Part shown: positions 52,499 to 61,295 of the stretch, piece by piece
How positions within the stretch are numbered: the stretch's first letter is position 1
How the letters are laid out: every line of letters begins with the position of its first letter
NCBI RefSeq assembly: GCF_005281615.1
Contig: NZ_SZZM01000001.1
Span: 62,272-126,271, forward strand
Direction of reading: 5' to 3'
DNA from: Rhodoligotrophos defluvii
GTDB lineage: Bacteria > Pseudomonadota > Alphaproteobacteria > Rhizobiales > Im1
Length of the DNA stretch: 64,000 bases
Notes under the pieces: model-generated
Database searches by the model: none
Seen by the model: only the letters and a program-made list of their open reading frames with translations
Told to the model about the DNA's origin: nothing
Translations under genes and position numbers: made by a program

Positions 52499-53134
52499 TC
52501 AGCTTACCGATTTTTCCAAGGATTCCAGCAGGGGCAGCCAGCTTTCCTGTTCGCTGGCGGCCGACTTGCTCTTGAGATCGAACACGGTCAGCCCCTGCTC
52601 GGCGAGCTTGGGATAAAGGCTCTTGTCGGAGATGCGCGCCACAATGGCGTGGCCGTGGCCCAGCAGCACCCGCTCCAGCCGCTTGGCCTGGGGGCTGGTG
52701 GGGCGGAAGCGGTTGGCCACCAGCAGGATCTGCTTCTTGCCCGACCTGATCTTCTTGAGATCCTCGATCTCATCGAGAAAGCGGATGGTCGCCCGCTCGT
52801 CATAGATGGAGGCCTGCACCGGCACCACGACGGCGTCAGCCTCGCGGATGACCTCGCGAGCGCGGCCGGCTTTGAGGGATGCCGGACAGTCGATGATCAG
52901 CCGCTGGACGGAGCGGCCGACCTTGCCGAAGCCAGCGCCGCGCCAGTCGATCACCTCGATGGGGGCGGCGCTCTCTGGGCGCAGCTCTCCGAACAGACAA
53001 GCGCTCTTCTGCTTGTCGTAATCCGCAAGCGCGGCGATCAGGCCGGATGCGGCAAAGCCCGCGGCCAGATGCGTGGCGACGGTGGTCTTGCCGCAGCCTC
53101 CCTTGGTGTTCATGACCGCAACCGAAAAGGTCAT
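52499..53134 (-). CDS. ParA/MinD-like P-loop ATPase
   Basis: A 211-residue ParA-family ATPase with the deviant Walker A KGGCGKTTVATHLA, an ALADYDKQKSA segment, Walker B-like LIIDCPASL and VVVPVQASIYD. The short length, without an N-terminal HTH, resembles cargo-positioning ParA proteins rather than chromosome ParA, and no parB follows. Its ATG overlaps the stop of the CYTH-CHAD gene (ATGA), so the two are translationally coupled. ParA-type ATPases move cargo over the nucleoid; the coupled CHAD protein suggests that polyphosphate granules could be the cargo (inference). Confidence 0.9.
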   Translation of the reverse strand: MTFSVAVMNTKGGCGKTTVATHLAAGFAASGLIAALADYDKQKSACLFGELRPESAAPIEVIDWRGAGFGKVGRSVQRLIIDCPASLKAGRAREVIREADAVVVPVQASIYDERATIRFLDEIEDLKKIRSGKKQILLVANRFRPTSPQAKRLERVLLGHGHAIVARISDKSLYPKLAEQGLTVFDLKSKSAASEQESWLPLLESLEKSVS

Positions 53135-54672
53135 TCCTCGCCCGTTCTCTTGCGCAAGGGAAAGCCGGCCTTCTCGAACTGGCGGAAGGCGCGGGCCGCC
53201 TCGACGATGAAGCTGTCCTCGGCGGAATGGCGCCAGTCGTGCAGAACCGCCAAAGCCCGCTTCAGCGGCCGGCGCCGTTGCGGGGCTGCCTCTTGGACGA
53301 GCCGCTCCAGAAACGCCTCGGCGACATGGAGGTCGTTCAGCCGGCCCAGCTCGCTCTGGATCGCCTCAACCGTCTTGCGGTAGCTGTCGGCCAGCTCGGC
53401 CGGCAGATCGAGCGTCGACAGCAAGGGCTCCGCCGCATAGCGCAGCTTCTTGGCGGCGATGCGCGCCTCGTGCCACTCGTCCAGCACGACCGATTGCCGT
53501 GCCGCCCTCCCCTTCTTGAGCAAGCGCTTGTGCAGCTTGCGCAGGCGCGGCGCCGCGAAGTCGGCGACCGGGCGGCGGGCGAGCAGCTTATCGAGCGGGG
53601 TGCCGCTCTTGAGCCAGCTGCCAGCCTCGATCCATCCGTAGAGCTCGATCACCAGCCGGGCGGTGTCGGGACTTTCCAGCTGTGCCACCACCTTCTCCTG
53701 TCCCGCACGACGGCAGCGGGCGGCCTCCTCCTCCACCAGCTCGGCCAGGCTCGGCTTCATGCCGGCCTTGACCAGTTGCGGCAGGGTATCGGCCACGAAG
53801 ACATCGGCCTCGCGCACGGCGCCGAACGTGGCGAAGAGCTGCTTGATCCCCTCGAGCAGGCGCGCCGCATCGGTCGTGTCCATCACCGGGGCGAAGGCGG
53901 AGATGGTCGACCGCAGGCGACGCAAGGCCACCCGGATCTGGTGAAGCCCATCGGGCAAGCCTGCATGGGCCGCCGGCACATTGTTGAGGAACTGGGTGAA
54001 GCCATGCCGCAGCATCAGCCGGATCGCATCCGGCAGAAGCATGCGTGGCGGCAGCGACAGCTTGCGCGCGTGGACAGCCGCCGGCGCCTCTCCCGAGACC
54101 AGGCGATAGCCGCGGGCCGCCTTGCCGCTGGCGATGAGGCTTGCCGGAACCCGGTCGAGGAAATCCAGAACGACGGCGACGAAAGCGCCGATGTTCTCGC
54201 CCTTGAGCTCAACCTCGACCTCGCAGATCGGCACCTTCTCCGCGCCATGGACGATCTCGCCCCGGTCGAAGGCGAGCTCGGCGACCTCGCCTTCTCCGGC
54301 CCGGTGGCGACGGCGCGTGAACCGGGTGGTGAAAACGGCCGAGAGCTCGCTGGCGGCGATTTCGTCACGGAGATCTTCCGGGGCGACGGCCAGCAGGTGG
54401 TCGCGCTTGAGGCGGGGCGTGCGGATGGGAATCTCGTGTTCCGCCCGGGTCAAGGCGCCGCCGTCCCCATCGGGCAGTTTCACGGTCTGCAGCAGCGCGG
54501 GGCCGTCACGTCGCAGACGCACCTGAATGCCATGCCGGCGCAGCAGAAGATCCGGCGTGTCGAAATAGGTGGACTCAACCGCAATAGGCGGGTCTTGGGC
54601 AAACAGCGCTTCCGCAGCGGCGAGCCCTTCCCCCTGGATCGCCAGCTTGATTTCGGTCTCGTCGCTCAACAA
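53131..54672 (-). CDS. CYTH and CHAD domain protein
   Basis: A 513-residue two-domain protein. The N-terminal CYTH domain (residues 1 to about 205) has the ExExK motif (ETEIKLA) and further basic and acidic residues of the triphosphate tunnel (STYFDTPDLLLRRHGIQVRLR; ICEVEVELKGEN). The C-terminal CHAD domain (about 220-505) is helical and rich in conserved His and Arg/Lys (HQIRVALRRLRSTISAF; HEARIAAKKLRYAAEPL). CYTH enzymes act on tripolyphosphate or inorganic polyphosphate. CHAD proteins bind polyphosphate granules in other bacteria. It is translated together with the downstream ParA ATPase. Confidence 0.93.
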   Translation of the reverse strand: MLSDETEIKLAIQGEGLAAAEALFAQDPPIAVESTYFDTPDLLLRRHGIQVRLRRDGPALLQTVKLPDGDGGALTRAEHEIPIRTPRLKRDHLLAVAPEDLRDEIAASELSAVFTTRFTRRRHRAGEGEVAELAFDRGEIVHGAEKVPICEVEVELKGENIGAFVAVVLDFLDRVPASLIASGKAARGYRLVSGEAPAAVHARKLSLPPRMLLPDAIRLMLRHGFTQFLNNVPAAHAGLPDGLHQIRVALRRLRSTISAFAPVMDTTDAARLLEGIKQLFATFGAVREADVFVADTLPQLVKAGMKPSLAELVEEEAARCRRAGQEKVVAQLESPDTARLVIELYGWIEAGSWLKSGTPLDKLLARRPVADFAAPRLRKLHKRLLKKGRAARQSVVLDEWHEARIAAKKLRYAAEPLLSTLDLPAELADSYRKTVEAIQSELGRLNDLHVAEAFLERLVQEAAPQRRRPLKRALAVLHDWRHSAEDSFIVEAARAFRQFEKAGFPLRKRTGEE

Positions 54673-54802: not shown

Positions 54803-57800
54803 TTACGATCGCTGGTTGCCGCCGAGTTCCGCCTCGAGCTGCTGGGTGACGTGGGCGCGCGGGCGGGTTAGCCGCGCCATCAGGTCATACAGCACCGGCG
54901 TGAGATAAAGGGTGAGCACGGAAGCGATGCCGAAGCCGCCGATGATCACCATGCCGATGGCGCTGCGGCTCTCGGCGCCGGCGCCGGTCGCGATCGCCAG
55001 GGGCACCGCGCCGAGCACGGTGGCGATCACCGTCATGAGGATCGGCCGCAACCGCACCACCGACGCTTCCAGGATCGCATCGCGCACCGATTTGCCCTCG
55101 TCGCGCAGCTGATTGGCGAATTCCACGATGAGAATGCCGTTCTTGGCCATGAGGCCGACGAGCAGCACCAGCCCGACCTGGCTGTAGATGTTGAGCGATC
55201 CTCCGGTGAACCAGATGGTGGCGAAGGCGCCGGTCACCGCCAACGGCACCGACAGCAGGATGGTCAAGGGGTGGACGAAGCTCTCGAACTGCGCCGCCAG
55301 CACCAGGTACACGATGAGGATGGCCAAGAGGAAGCTGAGATTGGCGCCGCTCGAGGTCTCGAGATACTCCTTGGACTGGCCTGCAAAACTGAGCCGCCCG
55401 GACACGGGGAGAACCTCGTTCGCCAACTCCTGGATCGCACTGATGGCCGTGCCGAGGTCATAGCCCTCGGCGAGGGACGCCGAAAGGGTGATCGAGGGCA
55501 AGCGGTCATAGCGCGCCAGGCTGGCGGAGGCGGCATGGGAGCGGAAGCTGATGAACGAGCTCAGCGGCACCAACTTGCCGGAATTGGTGCGCACGAAGGA
55601 TGCGCCCAAATCCTGCGCCGTCTGGCGGTCCTCGTCGCCGGCCTGGACGATGACCGGGTATTCGCGGCCGCGGTCGATATATCGCGTCACCTCCTGCGAG
55701 GCGAACAGAGCCTGCAGGGTCTGCGCGACGGTCTGGATGTCGATCCCGAGGTCACGGGCCCGTTCGCGGTCGATCTCGACGCGGTATTCGGGCTGGTTCT
55801 CCTCGTAATCGAGCTCGACGTTCTGCAGGCCGGGATTGGCGCGGGCGCGCTCGAGCATGTCCTGCGCCCACGCCTTCACGCTCTCGAAATCGGGCCCGCC
55901 GATCACCGCCCGCACCGGGTTGCCGGCGCCGCGCAGCCCGAGGCCGGCGAGCTGGATCGGGAAGGCGCGCACGTCGGTCACCTGCGCCAGCTGAGGGATA
56001 AGCGTGCTGACGATCTGCTGCTGGCTGCGCTGGCGCTGGTCCCAGTCGGTGAGGCGCACCACGACGAGGGCCGTGGAGGGATCGTTGCCGCGACCCACTA
56101 TGCTCGTGACGGACAGGGCTTCGCCGCTATCGACCAGCGGCTGCAAAATCGCTTCCACCTTCTTGGTGGCGGCATCGGTATAGGCGAGGTTCGCCCCCTG
56201 TGGCGCGGTGATCGCGACGATGAACAGGCCGCGATCCTCGCGTGCGGTGAGCTCTTTGGGCAGGGCCGTGTAGAGGGCGGCCGACGCAGCCGCGATGGCG
56301 AGGCTCACGCCGATGACCAGAACGGGATGACGCAGCGCCCAGCCGAGGCTCGCCCCGTAGACCCGGTTGACCCTTTTAGTGACGCGCTCGACCAGCCGCT
56401 CGAGCCGGCCCTGCTCGGTGGTGCGGGGCAGGATGATCGAGCACAGCATGGGGCAGAGCGACAGGGCCACGATCATGGACACGGCGACGGCAATGGCCAT
56501 GACCACGCCAAACTCCGCAAACAGCCGGCCCACGGTTCCCTGCAGCATGGAGATCGGCACGAACACCGCCATCAAGGTGAGCGAAGTGGCGATCACGGCG
56601 AAGGTTACTTGCTTGGCGCCGAGCACGCTGGCCACCAGGCGCGATTCGCCCTGCTCCATCCGGCGGCGGATGTTCTCCAGCACCACGATCGCGTCGTCCA
56701 CCACGATGCCGATGGCCAGCACCAGGGCGAACAGGGTCAAGATGTTGATGGAATAGCCGAGCAGGGCAATGCCCCAGCAGGCACCGAGCAGCGAGATCGG
56801 AATGGTGACAGTGGGCACGAGCGTGCCGCGGAGCGAGGCAAGGAAGCCGTAGATGACCAGCACGACCAGCGCGACAGCGATCACCAGGGCCTTGACGACC
56901 TCGTGGATGGCCGACTGGATGAACACCGCGTCATCGCTGCCGACGGTGATCTGCATGCCCTCAGGCAGTTGCGGCTGCAGGGCGGCGATCTCGGCGCGAA
57001 TGGCCTTCGAAATCCGCACGGTATTGGCCTGGGACTGGCGCAATACACCCAGGGTGACCGCGCCCTTGGCGCCGCTACGCACGATGGTGTCGTCGTTCTC
57101 GACCCCACGCTCGACCCGGGCGATGTCGCCAACCCGGATGGGATAGCCGTTGCTGGTTTTTATGGTGATGGCGGCGAAGGCCTCCGGCGTGTCGAGCCGG
57201 GTATCGGTGCGCACCTGGAACCGGCGCTTGGCCGACACCACCTCGCCCGCCGGCAGTTCCACGTTGTTCGCCCGGAGGGCCGCGGTCACATCGCTCACGG
57301 TCACGTCGCGCGCCGCCATGGCGCGGCGATCGAGCCACACGCGGATGGCGTAGACGCGCTCGCCCATGATGTCGACTTCCGCCACCCCGTCCACGGTGGC
57401 GAGACGATCGGTAATGAACCGGTCCGCGTAGTCGGTTAGAGCGGCGGTATCCATGGTATCGCTGGTGAGGCTCAGCCGCATCACCGGGCTCGCATCGCTG
57501 TCGCTCTTGGTGATGCGCGGTTCCTCGGCGTCTTCGGGCAGCTCGTTGACCACCCGCGCCACCGCTGCGCGCACGTCGTTGGCGGCCTCGTCGATATTGC
57601 GCGAGGTCTCGAACTCGATCACTGTGCGCGCCCTGCCGAGGCCCGAGGAGGAGGCGATGCTCCTCACCCCAGCGATGCCAGCGACCGCGCCCTCGATGAT
57701 GGTGGTGATCTGCGTGTCGGTCACTTCCGGCGCGGCGCCCGTATACGCCGTCGTGACCGTCACCACAGGCATTTCGACATCCGGCAGCTCTCGCACCGGA

Positions 57801-57895
57801 AGGCTGTTCAGGGCGGCCAAGCCGAACAGCACGATCATCAGGCTGATGACGACCGCGAAAACCGGCCGGCGGATGAACAGGTCCGAGACGTTCAT
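54803..57895 (-). CDS. RND family efflux pump, inner-membrane permease (HAE1 type)
   Basis: A 1030-residue, 12-helix proton-driven pump. Proton-relay residues are visible: the Asp pair in helix 4 (GIVVDDAIVVLENIRRR) and the Lys in helix 10 (LMAKNGILIVEFANQLR). Large periplasmic porter loops flank them. The N-terminus (DLFIRRPVFAVVISLMIVLFGLAALNSLPVRELPDVEMPVV) is typical. Its ATG overlaps the stop of the adaptor gene (ATGA). It is the last gene of a four-gene operon; no TolC-like channel follows, so an outer-membrane partner must come from elsewhere. The drug or compound range cannot be told. Confidence 0.95.
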   Translation of the reverse strand: MNVSDLFIRRPVFAVVISLMIVLFGLAALNSLPVRELPDVEMPVVTVTTAYTGAAPEVTDTQITTIIEGAVAGIAGVRSIASSSGLGRARTVIEFETSRNIDEAANDVRAAVARVVNELPEDAEEPRITKSDSDASPVMRLSLTSDTMDTAALTDYADRFITDRLATVDGVAEVDIMGERVYAIRVWLDRRAMAARDVTVSDVTAALRANNVELPAGEVVSAKRRFQVRTDTRLDTPEAFAAITIKTSNGYPIRVGDIARVERGVENDDTIVRSGAKGAVTLGVLRQSQANTVRISKAIRAEIAALQPQLPEGMQITVGSDDAVFIQSAIHEVVKALVIAVALVVLVIYGFLASLRGTLVPTVTIPISLLGACWGIALLGYSINILTLFALVLAIGIVVDDAIVVLENIRRRMEQGESRLVASVLGAKQVTFAVIATSLTLMAVFVPISMLQGTVGRLFAEFGVVMAIAVAVSMIVALSLCPMLCSIILPRTTEQGRLERLVERVTKRVNRVYGASLGWALRHPVLVIGVSLAIAAASAALYTALPKELTAREDRGLFIVAITAPQGANLAYTDAATKKVEAILQPLVDSGEALSVTSIVGRGNDPSTALVVVRLTDWDQRQRSQQQIVSTLIPQLAQVTDVRAFPIQLAGLGLRGAGNPVRAVIGGPDFESVKAWAQDMLERARANPGLQNVELDYEENQPEYRVEIDRERARDLGIDIQTVAQTLQALFASQEVTRYIDRGREYPVIVQAGDEDRQTAQDLGASFVRTNSGKLVPLSSFISFRSHAASASLARYDRLPSITLSASLAEGYDLGTAISAIQELANEVLPVSGRLSFAGQSKEYLETSSGANLSFLLAILIVYLVLAAQFESFVHPLTILLSVPLAVTGAFATIWFTGGSLNIYSQVGLVLLVGLMAKNGILIVEFANQLRDEGKSVRDAILEASVVRLRPILMTVIATVLGAVPLAIATGAGAESRSAIGMVIIGGFGIASVLTLYLTPVLYDLMARLTRPRAHVTQQLEAELGGNQRS

Positions 57896-59091
57896 GAGCC
57901 CGTTCCCTCGGCGTGCGCGGTGCTGTTCCCGGCAAGCACCTTGACGGCGACGCCATCGCCCAAGCTCTGAAGCCCGCTGCTGATCACCTGCTCGCCCTGG
58001 CTCAAGCCGTCAACCACCTCGACCATGCCGTCGGCGGTGTGGGCGCCGATCGCGACCGGTCGGCGCTGCGCCTTGCCGTCGGCCAGGACATACACGAAGG
58101 TCTCGCTGCCGGCGGTGATCACCGCCTCTTCCGGTATGGCCGAGGCCACGCGCTGGTCGAGCGCGATGGTGATGTTCACGAACATGCCCGGCTTGAGCGC
58201 GAGGTCTGGATTGGGAATGGCGGCGCGAACGGTAAAGGCGCGAGATCCCGGATCAATGCGCGTGTCTATGGCGGAAATGCTGCCTTCGAACGTGCGGCCG
58301 GGGAACGCGGCGGAGGTCGCCTCGACCGGCAGGCCGGTGGCGATTTGGCTCAGCAGCCGCTCCGGCAGGGCAAATTCGAGCTCGACCGTGCTCAGATCAT
58401 CCAAAGTGGTGAGAACGGTCGAGGTGTCGACCCATGCGCCGATGTCGGTGCGGCTCAGCCCGACCACGCCGGCGAAGGGCGCTATGATCTGCTGGCGCGC
58501 GAGATCCCGTTCAGCCCGATCCATGGCCGCCTTGGCCTTTGCATGGGCGGTCTGCGCCTGTTCCAGGGCTGCCCGCGTTGCCACCTTCGACTGCACCAGC
58601 TTTTTCTGGCGTTCCAACGCCTCGCTCGCTTCAGCAAGCGCGGCCTTGGCCTCTTCGAGCGCGATGCGCTGGTCGCGGTCATCCAGCCTGACCAGGACAT
58701 CACCGGCTTTCACCCTTTGCCCCGGCCCGAACAGGATCTCCTCGACGCGGCCTGCCGCCTCGGGCACGATGGTCACGGACTGGTTGGCCCTCAGGGAGCC
58801 GACCGCCTCGGCCTTGCTCAAGAAGGTCGCCGTGCCGACCTCCTTGGTGCTGACCGGCACCTCGCGGGGGCCGCGTGCACCCCGTGGCCCGGCGCCACCT
58901 GAATTCGCACGAGGCGCACCCGTGCTGGGCGAAGGTGAAGCAGACGCCACGCCGAGGATTTCCTTGCTCGAGGCTGCCGCGGCGCGCAGCATGGCGCCCC
59001 AATCCCTGTCTTGCGACGTGCTGCCGGCGCCGACCGCAACCCCGGCGCACAGGCTCAAGACTGCGATGAGAACTCCGGTTCGGGCTTTCAT
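57892..59091 (-). CDS. RND efflux periplasmic adaptor (membrane fusion protein)
   Basis: A 399-residue HlyD/AcrA-like adaptor. After an N-terminal hydrophobic anchor or signal (GVLIAVLSLCAGVAVGAG) comes a Gly/Ala/Pro-rich linker, a lipoyl-type domain (EAAGRVEEILFGPGQRVKAGDVLVRLDD), an alpha-hairpin coiled coil, the second lipoyl half (QQIIAPFAGVVGLSRTDIGAWV) and beta-barrel domains. ATG 59091 is chosen, with GAGGAG about 10 bases upstream; a TTG at 59100 is possible. The kinase gene ends 20 bases upstream. It bridges the pump to an outer-membrane channel. Confidence 0.93.
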   Translation of the reverse strand: MKARTGVLIAVLSLCAGVAVGAGSTSQDRDWGAMLRAAAASSKEILGVASASPSPSTGAPRANSGGAGPRGARGPREVPVSTKEVGTATFLSKAEAVGSLRANQSVTIVPEAAGRVEEILFGPGQRVKAGDVLVRLDDRDQRIALEEAKAALAEASEALERQKKLVQSKVATRAALEQAQTAHAKAKAAMDRAERDLARQQIIAPFAGVVGLSRTDIGAWVDTSTVLTTLDDLSTVELEFALPERLLSQIATGLPVEATSAAFPGRTFEGSISAIDTRIDPGSRAFTVRAAIPNPDLALKPGMFVNITIALDQRVASAIPEEAVITAGSETFVYVLADGKAQRRPVAIGAHTADGMVEVVDGLSQGEQVISSGLQSLGDGVAVKVLAGNSTAHAEGTGS

Positions 59092-59111
59092 AAGGCTCAA
59101 GCTCCTCAGGG

Positions 59112-60512
59112 TTATTCCGGCGCCCGCAAGGGCAGCCTGACCAGTGCGCGCAAACCGCGTTCGGCGCGGTTCTGCAGGGCAATGGTGCCGCCATGGGCGA
59201 GCACCACCGAGCGTGCAATCGCCAGGCCAAGGCCGGCGCCACCAGTCTCGCGGCTGCGCGAAGTCTCCAGGCGGACGAAAGGGGCAAAGACGTGGGTCAG
59301 CTTGTCTTCGGGAATGCCGGGGCCGTCGTCATCGACAATGACCCTGATCTCGTCGTCGGGCGTTTCGACCTTGACCCGTGCGGCGCCGCCATAGCGGACC
59401 GCGTTGTCGATGAGGTTGGCGAAGGCCCGCTTCATGCTGGCAGGACGGCAGCGATAGGGGAGCGGCCCCCTCTCCTCCAGACTCACCGCATGGCCGAGGT
59501 CGACCATGTCGTCGGTGACGCTTTCGATCAGGGCCGCAAGATCCACCGTCCGGCTGGGTTCGTCCGTCGCCTCGTCGCGGGCGAAGGACAGCGTCGCCTC
59601 GGTCATCTTCTTCATGTCGTCCAGATTGGCGATCATGGTGCGCCGGGTCTCCTCATCATCGATGAGCTCGGCCCGTACCCTGAGCGCGGTAATCGGCGTC
59701 CTCAGGTCGTGGCTGATGGCCGCAAGCATGCGCGTCCTATCTTCTACGAAGCGGGTGAGGCGGGCGCCCATCTCGTTGAAGGCTGAAGTAAGGCGGCGAA
59801 TCTCGTCGGGCCCGGACACCTCGAGTTCGGGCAGCGTTTCGCCCCGGCCGAGGCGGTCGGCCGCCGTCGCGAGGCTGCGCAAGGGCTTGGTGATGCTGCG
59901 CACCATCAGCACCACCACCGCGAGGATGGCGATGCCCATCAGCGCGGCCGAGGCGAGCGGCAGCAGGGCCCAGGAGCTGGACGGGCGGCGCAGGGGCAGC
60001 TCGACATTGAGCCAGCGGCCGTCGCGCAAAGGCACGTCGATGGCCATCACCGCGTCATCGTCGCCTTCGTCGGCGCCCCAGCCGAACAGCGCGCCGGTGG
60101 CCTGGTCAACCCAACGCAGGATGGCGGGCCGCTGTCCGTCGCCGTTATAGCGCGACCGCAGCCGCACGTCGGCCGCGGCCTGCGGATTGAGATAGGCGCC
60201 AAGCCGCTTCGCCAGCTCCACGTCGCCAGCGCTGGCTGGAGCACCCTCGATGCTCGGCGCAGGCCGCACCCGGTAGACCTGCCAGCGGGAGCTCACGGCA
60301 GACGTGATGCTGTCCGCATTGGCCGGCGTGTCCTCGATGACCTTGGCGACGGAGGCGACACGACTGAAGAATTCCTCGCGCCAGGCTTCGCGCAGGGCCT
60401 GGTTGCGCTCGCCGAAAAACATGGCGACGGTGACGACCTGCGACAGGATCAGGGCCGCGAGCAGCAGGAAGACAAGCTGACCGGCGATCGTGCGGGGGAA
60501 CCAGCGCGTCAC
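59112..60512 (-). CDS. Sensor histidine kinase of the RND operon
   Basis: A 466-residue inner-membrane kinase with helix 1 (GQLVFLLLAALILSQVVTVAMFF), a periplasmic sensor of about 130 residues, helix 2 (ALLPLASAALMGIAILAVVVLMV), HAMP (SITKPLRSLATAADRLG), HisKA with His in LAAISHDLRTPITALRVRAE and HATPase_c ([35 protein letters not shown]). The GTG at 60512 overlaps the response regulator stop (GTGA) and has GGAGGAG upstream. EnvZ/CpxA-like in layout. It should phosphorylate the upstream-encoded regulator to control the pump. Confidence 0.93.
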   Translation of the reverse strand: MTRWFPRTIAGQLVFLLLAALILSQVVTVAMFFGERNQALREAWREEFFSRVASVAKVIEDTPANADSITSAVSSRWQVYRVRPAPSIEGAPASAGDVELAKRLGAYLNPQAAADVRLRSRYNGDGQRPAILRWVDQATGALFGWGADEGDDDAVMAIDVPLRDGRWLNVELPLRRPSSSWALLPLASAALMGIAILAVVVLMVRSITKPLRSLATAADRLGRGETLPELEVSGPDEIRRLTSAFNEMGARLTRFVEDRTRMLAAISHDLRTPITALRVRAELIDDEETRRTMIANLDDMKKMTEATLSFARDEATDEPSRTVDLAALIESVTDDMVDLGHAVSLEERGPLPYRCRPASMKRAFANLIDNAVRYGGAARVKVETPDDEIRVIVDDDGPGIPEDKLTHVFAPFVRLETSRSRETGGAGLGLAIARSVVLAHGGTIALQNRAERGLRALVRLPLRAPE

Positions 60513-61231
60513 GCAAGCTCCTCCACATCGACGGCCAGCACGTATCCGCCGCCCCACACGGTCTTGATGATGATTGGGTTCTTCGGATCGGCTTCGATCT
60601 TGCGCCGGAGCCGGCTCACCTGATTGTCGATGCTGCGGTCGAAGACCTGGGCGGCGCGGCCGGCGGTGAGGTCGAGCAGCTGGTCGCGGGAGAGGACGAT
60701 ATGCGGCCGCTGCAGGAACGTCTGCAGCAACCGGAACTCTGCGGTGCTCAGCGGGATGGCAACCCCGTCCGGGCCTGAGATCTCCTGCCGGGCGGCATCG
60801 AAGATCCAGCGATCGAAGCGGATGCGGCCCGGCTTGATGCGGTCACGCTGCCGGCTGCCGGCATTCGCCCGCCGTAGCACCGCGCGGATGCGGGCCAAGA
60901 GCTCGCGCGGATTGAACGGCTTGGTCACATAGTCATCGGCACCGATCTCGAGCCCGACGACCCGGTCGGTGTCCTCAGCCATGGCGGTGAGCATGATCAC
61001 CGGAATGTCGCTGGTCTCGCGCAAATGGCGGCAGAGACTCAAGCCGTCCTCGCCCGGCATCATCACATCGAGCACCACCAAGTCGACGGCGCCGTGCTTC
61101 AGCGCTGCCCGCATCTCCGCGCCGCCGTCGGCCGCGGTCACCCGCATGCCGTTGCGCATGAGGTACTTGCTCACCGCATCCCTGATGTCGCGATGATCGT
61201 CGACGACGAGGATATGTGGCGTCTGTTCCAT
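60509..61231 (-). CDS. OmpR-family response regulator of the RND operon
   Basis: A 240-residue regulator with an N-terminal receiver (HILVVDDHRDIRDAV, phospho-Asp in VDLVVLDVMMPGEDG, switch Thr/Ala in MLTAMAEDTD, Lys in DYVTKPFNPRELLAR) and a C-terminal winged helix (LSTAEFRLLQTFLQRPHIVLSRDQLL; DRSIDNQVSRLRRKIE). The start is ATG at 61231 with AGGA five bases upstream. It is first in the operon and is preceded by a dyad (61307-61333) over a TACAAT -10, so autoregulation is likely. Confidence 0.95.
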   Translation of the reverse strand: MEQTPHILVVDDHRDIRDAVSKYLMRNGMRVTAADGGAEMRAALKHGAVDLVVLDVMMPGEDGLSLCRHLRETSDIPVIMLTAMAEDTDRVVGLEIGADDYVTKPFNPRELLARIRAVLRRANAGSRQRDRIKPGRIRFDRWIFDAARQEISGPDGVAIPLSTAEFRLLQTFLQRPHIVLSRDQLLDLTAGRAAQVFDRSIDNQVSRLRRKIEADPKNPIIIKTVWGGGYVLAVDVEELA

Positions 61232-61295
61232 ATGAGTCCTGGTCACTGCCTCGGTCCTCTATATGTCGCGGCCCGTCCGGTTGGGCTCGCCCAAA

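What the first reader, a model, noticed from the sequence alone, without database searches (positions are those of the whole stretch)
52499..54672. ParA ATPase translationally coupled to a CYTH-CHAD protein: possible polyphosphate granule positioning system
The CYTH-CHAD gene stop and the ParA start overlap as ATGA. CHAD domains are known to bind polyphosphate granules and CYTH folds act on tri/polyphosphate. Orphan ParA ATPases without ParB position cargos such as carboxysomes and chemoreceptor clusters. Together they suggest that the CHAD protein is the cargo adaptor and ParA spaces or segregates polyphosphate granules. I know of no described system of this exact form.
Basis: partly seen in the sequence, partly recalled or inferred. 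Interest (0 to 1): 0.72.

Follow-up and report, generated by a model that had tools for sequence, protein, structure and literature searches.

The report
ParA paired with polyphosphate-binding protein
A ParA-type ATPase gene is joined to a gene for a polyphosphate-binding protein, and the pair recurs in many Alphaproteobacteria, which suggests, without yet showing it, that these bacteria use a ParA system to space or share out their phosphate storage granules.

Summary
A 513-aa CYTH-CHAD gene (53131-54672, minus) overlaps by ATGA a 211-aa ParA gene (52499-53134, minus). The pair recurs: 4 of 4 genomes of the family, 6 of 8 order-level genomes with a close ParA, 10 of 18 class-level ones, 19 of the 80 best named loci, all Alphaproteobacteria. 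Flanking genes mostly differ. Where flanks are informative they point to polyphosphate: CHAD-ParA-PPK2-PPK1 in one MAG, PPK1-Na/Pi cotransporter-CHAD-ParA in another, ppk1-ppx-rnd-ParA (no CHAD) in two Stappiaceae. One genome of another class has ParA-CHAD in reverse order. Two papers place parA with ppk and CYTH-CHAD in Acidithiobacillus; I saw no granule-positioning proposal in the passages read.

Against: outside Alphaproteobacteria 23 of 26 genomes with a close ParA have no CHAD nearby, and CHAD is not enriched among them. The CYTH-CHAD protein lacks the basic disordered N-terminus usual for ParA partners. Nothing here shows binding, gradients or granule movement.

Best reading: the two proteins act together on polyphosphate (likely), most plausibly as a ParA-type positioning system for polyP granules with CHAD as cargo adaptor (0.55). 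The kind (ParA/MinD cargo positioning) is known; the cargo and adaptor would be new.

The parts
52499..53134 (-). ParA-type ATPase gene, 211 aa, ATG start inside the CHAD stop
53081..53110 (-). deviant Walker A NTKGGCGKTT of ParA (residues 9-18)
   Evidence: K11 to T18 invariant in 18 linked ParAs; D38, D40 and D82 also invariant; the name of the motif is recalled
53131..54672 (-). CYTH-CHAD gene, 513 aa, TTG start
54163..54660 (-). CYTH domain (residues 5-170)
   Evidence: Pfam PF01928, 6.2e-19
53305..54015 (-). CHAD domain (residues 220-456)
   Evidence: Pfam PF05235, 5.2e-45; H244, R247, R251, H401, R404, K408, R411 invariant in 25 linked homologues
53131..53134 (-). ATGA overlap of the CHAD stop and the ParA start
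   Evidence: the same 4-base overlap in 11 of 33 other linked loci
53134..53166 (-). C-terminal end of CYTH-CHAD (GFPLRKRTGEE), a weak candidate for ParA contact
   Evidence: read; the tail comparison did not include the window's own clade

Best explanation
The two genes form a polyphosphate module. Proposed mechanism: the CHAD domain holds the protein on a polyP granule; ATP-bound ParA dimers sit on the nucleoid; granule-bound CYTH-CHAD binds these dimers and stimulates ATP hydrolysis, clearing ParA around the granule, so the granule follows the remaining ParA. Granules are thereby spaced along the nucleoid and shared between daughter cells, as McdA and McdB do for carboxysomes. The CYTH domain may also trim polyP or report its presence. 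Shown here: the genes, their conserved pairing, intact motifs, and polyP-metabolism neighbours in some genomes. Known from papers: CHAD domains bind polyP and CHAD proteins localise to granules. Inferred: ParA-CHAD contact, ATPase stimulation, nucleoid binding, granule movement.
For: Pair conserved in Alphaproteobacteria: family 4 of 4, order 6 of 8 genomes with close ParA, class 10 of 18, named loci 19 of 80. Flanks vary: 64 flanking genes in 46 clusters. PolyP genes beside the pair in L044 (PPK2, PPK1) and L073 (PPK1, Na/Pi cotransporter), and ppk1-ppx-rnd-ParA in L052 and L082. Reverse order ParA-CHAD in L136, a genome of another class. parA with ppk and CYTH-CHAD in Acidithiobacillus (PMC10892726; PMC6416229). 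Unlinked alphaproteobacterial genomes still carry CHAD: 7 of 8 class-level, 16 of 17 named, against 120 of 367 (the sets overlap and relatedness is not corrected). ATPase motifs invariant. The own genome has ppk1-ppx and ParB_N matches only elsewhere. CHAD binds polyP (PMC6537752 passages); ParA/MinD genes often lie near cargo loci (PMC10241942 passages).
Against: No interaction, localisation or movement shown. The CYTH domain begins almost at the N-terminus, so the basic disordered N-terminal stretch described for ParA/MinD partners (PMC10241942 passages) is missing. Outside Alphaproteobacteria, 23 of 26 genomes with ParA at E<1e-38 have no CHAD nearby, and CHAD is not enriched (14 of 32 vs 194 of 398). 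Adjacency is lost or gained several times (8 label changes). In most linked loci the flanks say nothing about polyP. Related unlinked ParAs lie beside phasin genes in two loci, which would suit another cargo. Other bacteria organise polyP granules without a known ParA (AlgP, PMC9239181 and PMC13052382 passages).
Confidence: 0.55

Rival explanations
1. ParA and CYTH-CHAD work together on polyP, but ParA is a regulator or static tether, not a positioner: an ATP-switched factor for CYTH-CHAD activity or granule initiation (as BcsQ, a ParA relative, is tied to cellulose synthesis; its role is recalled), or a nucleoid anchor.
For: The same conserved pairing. BcsQ is the second NCBIfam match of this ParA, far below its cut-off (41 vs 157.85 bits). 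Nucleoid tethering without a ParA is proposed for polyP by AlgP (PMC9239181, PMC13052382 passages).
Against: ParA/MinD ATPases beside cargo-binding proteins have mostly proved to be positioners in the studies seen (PMC10241942 passages).
Confidence: 0.22
2. ParA and CYTH-CHAD form a positioning system for a cargo other than polyP granules, or for several storage bodies; CHAD only senses polyP.
For: Phasin_2 gene directly 5' of a related unlinked ParA in L059 and near it in L066.
Against: Phasin found near only 2 of the ParA loci searched with these two queries; linked loci show PPK genes instead in L044 and L073.
Confidence: 0.1
3. CYTH-CHAD is a class IV adenylate cyclase tuned by polyP (the Acidithiobacillus reading) and ParA is a neighbour with an unrelated task.
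For: Proposed for the Acidithiobacillus homologue (PMC6416229 passages).
Against: Conserved pairing with ParA in both gene orders; the CYTH part matches an inorganic triphosphatase among solved structures.
Confidence: 0.06
4. Chance or hitch-hiking: the genes share an operon without sharing a function.
For: Adjacency is absent in several related ParA clades.
Against: Recurrence with changing flanks, polyP neighbours, reverse order in another class, published Acidithiobacillus cluster.
Confidence: 0.05

Closest known systems
McdA/McdB carboxysome positioning
   Same: A ParA-type ATPase encoded beside a protein that binds the cargo; nucleoid-based spacing is the model proposed here (PMC13052382, PMC10241942 passages)
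   Different: No carboxysome gene was seen in the flanks and the partner is CYTH-CHAD; the cargo would be polyP. No dedicated McdB search was run
Single-domain plasmid ParAs (ParF, 4dzz; 5u1g)
   Same: Length and best solved-structure relatives of the profile, E about 1e-19 over nearly the whole length
   Different: No ParB_N match near; paired with CYTH-CHAD in a genome contig of 1.9 Mb
AlgP of Pseudomonas aeruginosa (polyP granule spacing)
   Same: Would solve the same task
   Different: A histone H1-like DNA-binding protein, not a ParA with an adaptor (PMC9239181 passages)
ppk-parA-CYTH/CHAD cluster of Acidithiobacillus
   Same: parA, CYTH-CHAD and ppk together (PMC6416229; PMC10892726 section 3.3)
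   Different: Read there as cAMP or copper related; whether its ParA belongs to the same subfamily was not tested
CHAD proteins (phosins), YgiF
   Same: CYTH and CHAD domains over the Pfam cut-offs; YgiF-like 5a60 and CHAD 6qv5 among PDB matches (that 5a60 is YgiF is from PMC6537752's naming of 5A61)
   Different: Paired with ParA

Membership tests
ParA/MinD ATPases | Deviant Walker A with signature lysine (KGGxxKT), Walker A' and B aspartates (names recalled) | tested here: met
   KGGCGKTT, D38, D40, D82 invariant in 18 linked ParAs; Pfam AAA_31 and CbiA over cut-off
ParA/MinD ATPases | ATP-dependent dimer and binding to nucleoid or membrane | not testable with these tools
   The structure job never finished; no binding assay
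ParA cargo-positioning systems | Partner with a charged, disordered N-terminal stretch that contacts the ATPase | tested here: not met
   CYTH starts at residue 5; linked homologues show no shared N-terminal extension (25 of 34 linked proteins)
ParA cargo-positioning systems | ATPase encoded beside a cargo-binding protein, pairing conserved | tested here: met
   for Alphaproteobacteria
NCBI ParA family partition ATPase NF041546 | Score over the curated cut-off | tested here: not met
   129.3 vs 180 bits
ParABS chromosome or plasmid partition | parB beside parA | tested here: not met
   Five ParB_N matches in the genome, the nearest over 300 kb away on the contig
McdAB | McdB partner and carboxysome genes beside the ParA | tested here: inconclusive
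   Window neighbours are RND, two-component and MFS genes and CYTH-CHAD; no dedicated McdB search
CHAD (PF05235) | Domain score over the cut-off; conserved His and basic residues | tested here: met
   154.6 vs 25.6 bits; invariant residues
CHAD (PF05235) | Binds polyP, localises to granules | not testable with these tools
   Known for other CHAD proteins (PMC6537752 passages)

The most novel reading that the evidence does not exclude
A subfamily of single-domain ParAs is a storage-granule positioner: in Alphaproteobacteria it places polyphosphate granules through a CYTH-CHAD adaptor, and related ParAs beside phasin genes do the same for PHB granules, with SixA-like phosphatases as a recurrent third member. 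It would be an ATP-driven positioning system for storage granules, of which I know none.
Probability: 0.2. Interest if true: 0.85.

Novelty: new variant of a known kind. Interest (0 to 1): 0.62.

Why it matters
A 2025 review says that the spacing component of polyP granules is uncertain and asks whether it costs energy (PMC13052382 passages). This gene pair names a candidate ATPase and a candidate adaptor, shows that they recur together across many Alphaproteobacteria, and points to cultured Azospirillum strains that carry the pair for a direct test. If right, ParA positioning extends to phosphate storage bodies, and the inheritance of phosphate reserves becomes a tractable question.

Tried and rejected
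Chance adjacency: rejected by the survey. One clade of linked ParAs: rejected; the label needs 8 changes, 7 forced by well supported branches. A general ParA-CHAD partnership across Proteobacteria: not supported. An N-terminal contact peptide: looked for, not found. The terminal FW motif of CYTH-CHAD as a linked-only feature: rejected, unlinked proteins have it. Tail length after it differs (median 7 in 26 linked, 3 in 22 unlinked, p 0.002), but rows are related, and 8 of 34 linked proteins, the window's among them, and 2 of 24 unlinked ones were left out, most for want of the motif. Some 'unlinked' labels are unsure: in L058 and L071 the ParA lies within 0.5 kb of a contig end, and the genome of L071 has a CHAD 63 bases from another contig's end. 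A third partner common to all loci: none, though SixA-like genes recur. Gene calls in flanks come from a home-made ORF and GC-position rule and include some shadow ORFs.

Prior art: in an open-licence PMC library only; preprints and most subscription papers are not held, so 'not proposed in print' is limited to these. Tumlirsch and Jendrossek 2017 was not held and not read. Seen as passages: PMC9239181, PMC13052382, PMC10241942, PMC6537752, PMC6328274, PMC6416229, PMC6414705; PMC10892726 as passages plus its section 3.3.

Full report
What is there. On the minus strand a 513-aa ORF (53131-54672) carries an N-terminal CYTH and a C-terminal CHAD domain, and a 211-aa ORF (52499-53134) is a ParA-type ATPase. 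They overlap by ATGA. Upstream on the same strand lie an RND pump, a membrane-fusion protein and a kinase and regulator pair (the last two named from their sequence); downstream and convergent lies an MFS gene.

The ParA. KGGCGKTT, D38, D40 and D82 are invariant in 18 linked homologues (18 of the 34 linked ParAs were aligned). Its nearest solved relatives by profile are the single-domain ParAs 5u1g and 4dzz (ParF), E about 1e-19. It falls below the cut-off of NCBI's partition ATPase family (129.3 vs 180 bits). The genome has five ParB_N matches, none near this locus; the strongest lies beside another ParA-type ATPase. So this ParA is probably not the chromosome's own.

The CHAD protein. H244, R247, R251, H401, R404, K408 and R411 are invariant in 25 of the 34 linked homologues that were aligned. 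PDB relatives are CHAD domains and an inorganic triphosphatase. CHAD domains bind polyP through conserved basic residues (PMC6537752 passages). The genome has one PPK1 match, beside an exopolyphosphatase gene, 0.89 Mb away, so the cell can probably make polyP.

Conservation of the pair. Family: 4 of 4 genomes including the own one. Order: of 150 genomes, 8 have ParA at E<1e-35; in 6 it directly follows CYTH-CHAD; G073 has no CYTH-CHAD match and G116 has it on another contig. Class: of 385 genomes, 18 have ParA at E<1e-50; 10 linked, 8 not. For the tree, 33 of 104 loci are linked; two duplicates were dropped and the window added, giving 103 rows, 34 linked. The label needs 8 changes and 0 of 500 shuffles do as well. 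The levels overlap and many rows are close kin.

The pair is the conserved unit. The 64 genes flanking the linked pairs form 46 clusters; the largest, of 7, is shared by Azospirillum and three unnamed loci that group near it in the tree. Both genes look constrained.

Link to polyphosphate. L044: CHAD-ParA-PPK2-PPK1; L073: PPK1-Na/Pi cotransporter-CHAD-ParA. In Labrenzia and Roseibium (L052, L082) a related ParA follows ppk1-ppx-rnd, with no CHAD beside it. L136, of the window's phylum but another class: SixA-ParA-CYTH-CHAD, ParA first. Two papers place parA with ppk and CYTH-CHAD in Acidithiobacillus (PMC10892726; PMC6416229). SixA-like genes lie next to ParA in eight loci (L105, L127, L136, L140, L143, L148, L149, L150) and next to CHAD in L137 and L047 (in L127 on the far side of the pair); His_Phos_1 was confirmed for the two tested, L136 and L143.

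Co-occurrence. Where ParA is not adjacent, Alphaproteobacteria still carry CHAD: 7 of 8 class-level genomes (p 0.003) and 16 of 17 named ones (p 4e-7), against 120 of 367 class genomes without this ParA. The sets overlap (L065 is G394, L076 is G484), and relatedness is not corrected. Outside Alphaproteobacteria there is no enrichment: 14 of 32 vs 194 of 398, p 0.7. I sorted the 49 genomes by record title, and L076 by its match to G484.

Results against. In 398 genomes of the phylum, 28 have ParA at E<1e-38; two are Alphaproteobacteria (the own genome, linked, and G255, not). Of the other 26, one is adjacent to CHAD (G839), two have CHAD on the same strand 3.6 and 7.2 kb away (G760, G738), and 23 have none nearby: 16 by reading the neighbourhood, 7 because CHAD is on another contig or unmatched. 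The CHAD place list was capped, so the genomes whose CHAD place was missing were read directly. The protein lacks the N-terminal basic disordered stretch described for ParA partners (PMC10241942 passages).

Mechanism. The most economical model is the scheme known from McdAB: ParA-ATP on the nucleoid, CYTH-CHAD on the granule, local release of ParA, spacing by following the remaining ParA. Only genes, motifs and associations are shown; contact, hydrolysis and motion are inferred. In the review that I saw in passages, AlgP is the only polyP organiser tabulated, its ATP need is 'unknown', and in Caulobacter polyP placement depends on chromosome segregation by unidentified proteins (PMC13052382).

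Novelty. Adjacency of parA, ppk and CYTH-CHAD was in print for Acidithiobacillus. A granule-positioning reading, or the alphaproteobacterial conservation, was not found in the searches. I rate it a new variant of a known kind if confirmed: ParA cargo positioning with a new cargo and a new type of adaptor.

Noticed in passing
L059:4541-5047 (+), L066:8529-8966 (-): Phasin_2 genes beside related, CHAD-unlinked ParAs: directly 5' of ParA in L059, about 1.9 kb away in L066. Possible ParA link to PHB granules.
   Followed up: partly
L105, L127, L136, L140, L143, L148, L149, L150: A SixA-like histidine phosphatase gene lies next to ParA.
   Followed up: partly
L052, L082; L034, L035, L080: A related ParA sits beside an RNase D-like gene; in L052 and L082 the order is ppk1-ppx-rnd-ParA.
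   Followed up: partly
window 54803-61246 (-): RND pump, membrane-fusion protein, sensor kinase and regulator directly upstream of CYTH-CHAD on the same strand; RND genes are also named in the Acidithiobacillus figure legend.
   Followed up: no
own genome C1:440219 and 459753, C3:146513 and 164292, C1:1470913 and 1488591: ParB_N matches and other ParA relatives 17-20 kb apart in three places; perhaps integrated elements.
   Followed up: no
L070, L080: Contigs titled Streptomyces cinereus and Oceanobacillus carry ParAs that group with proteobacterial ones; perhaps contaminated assemblies.
   Followed up: no
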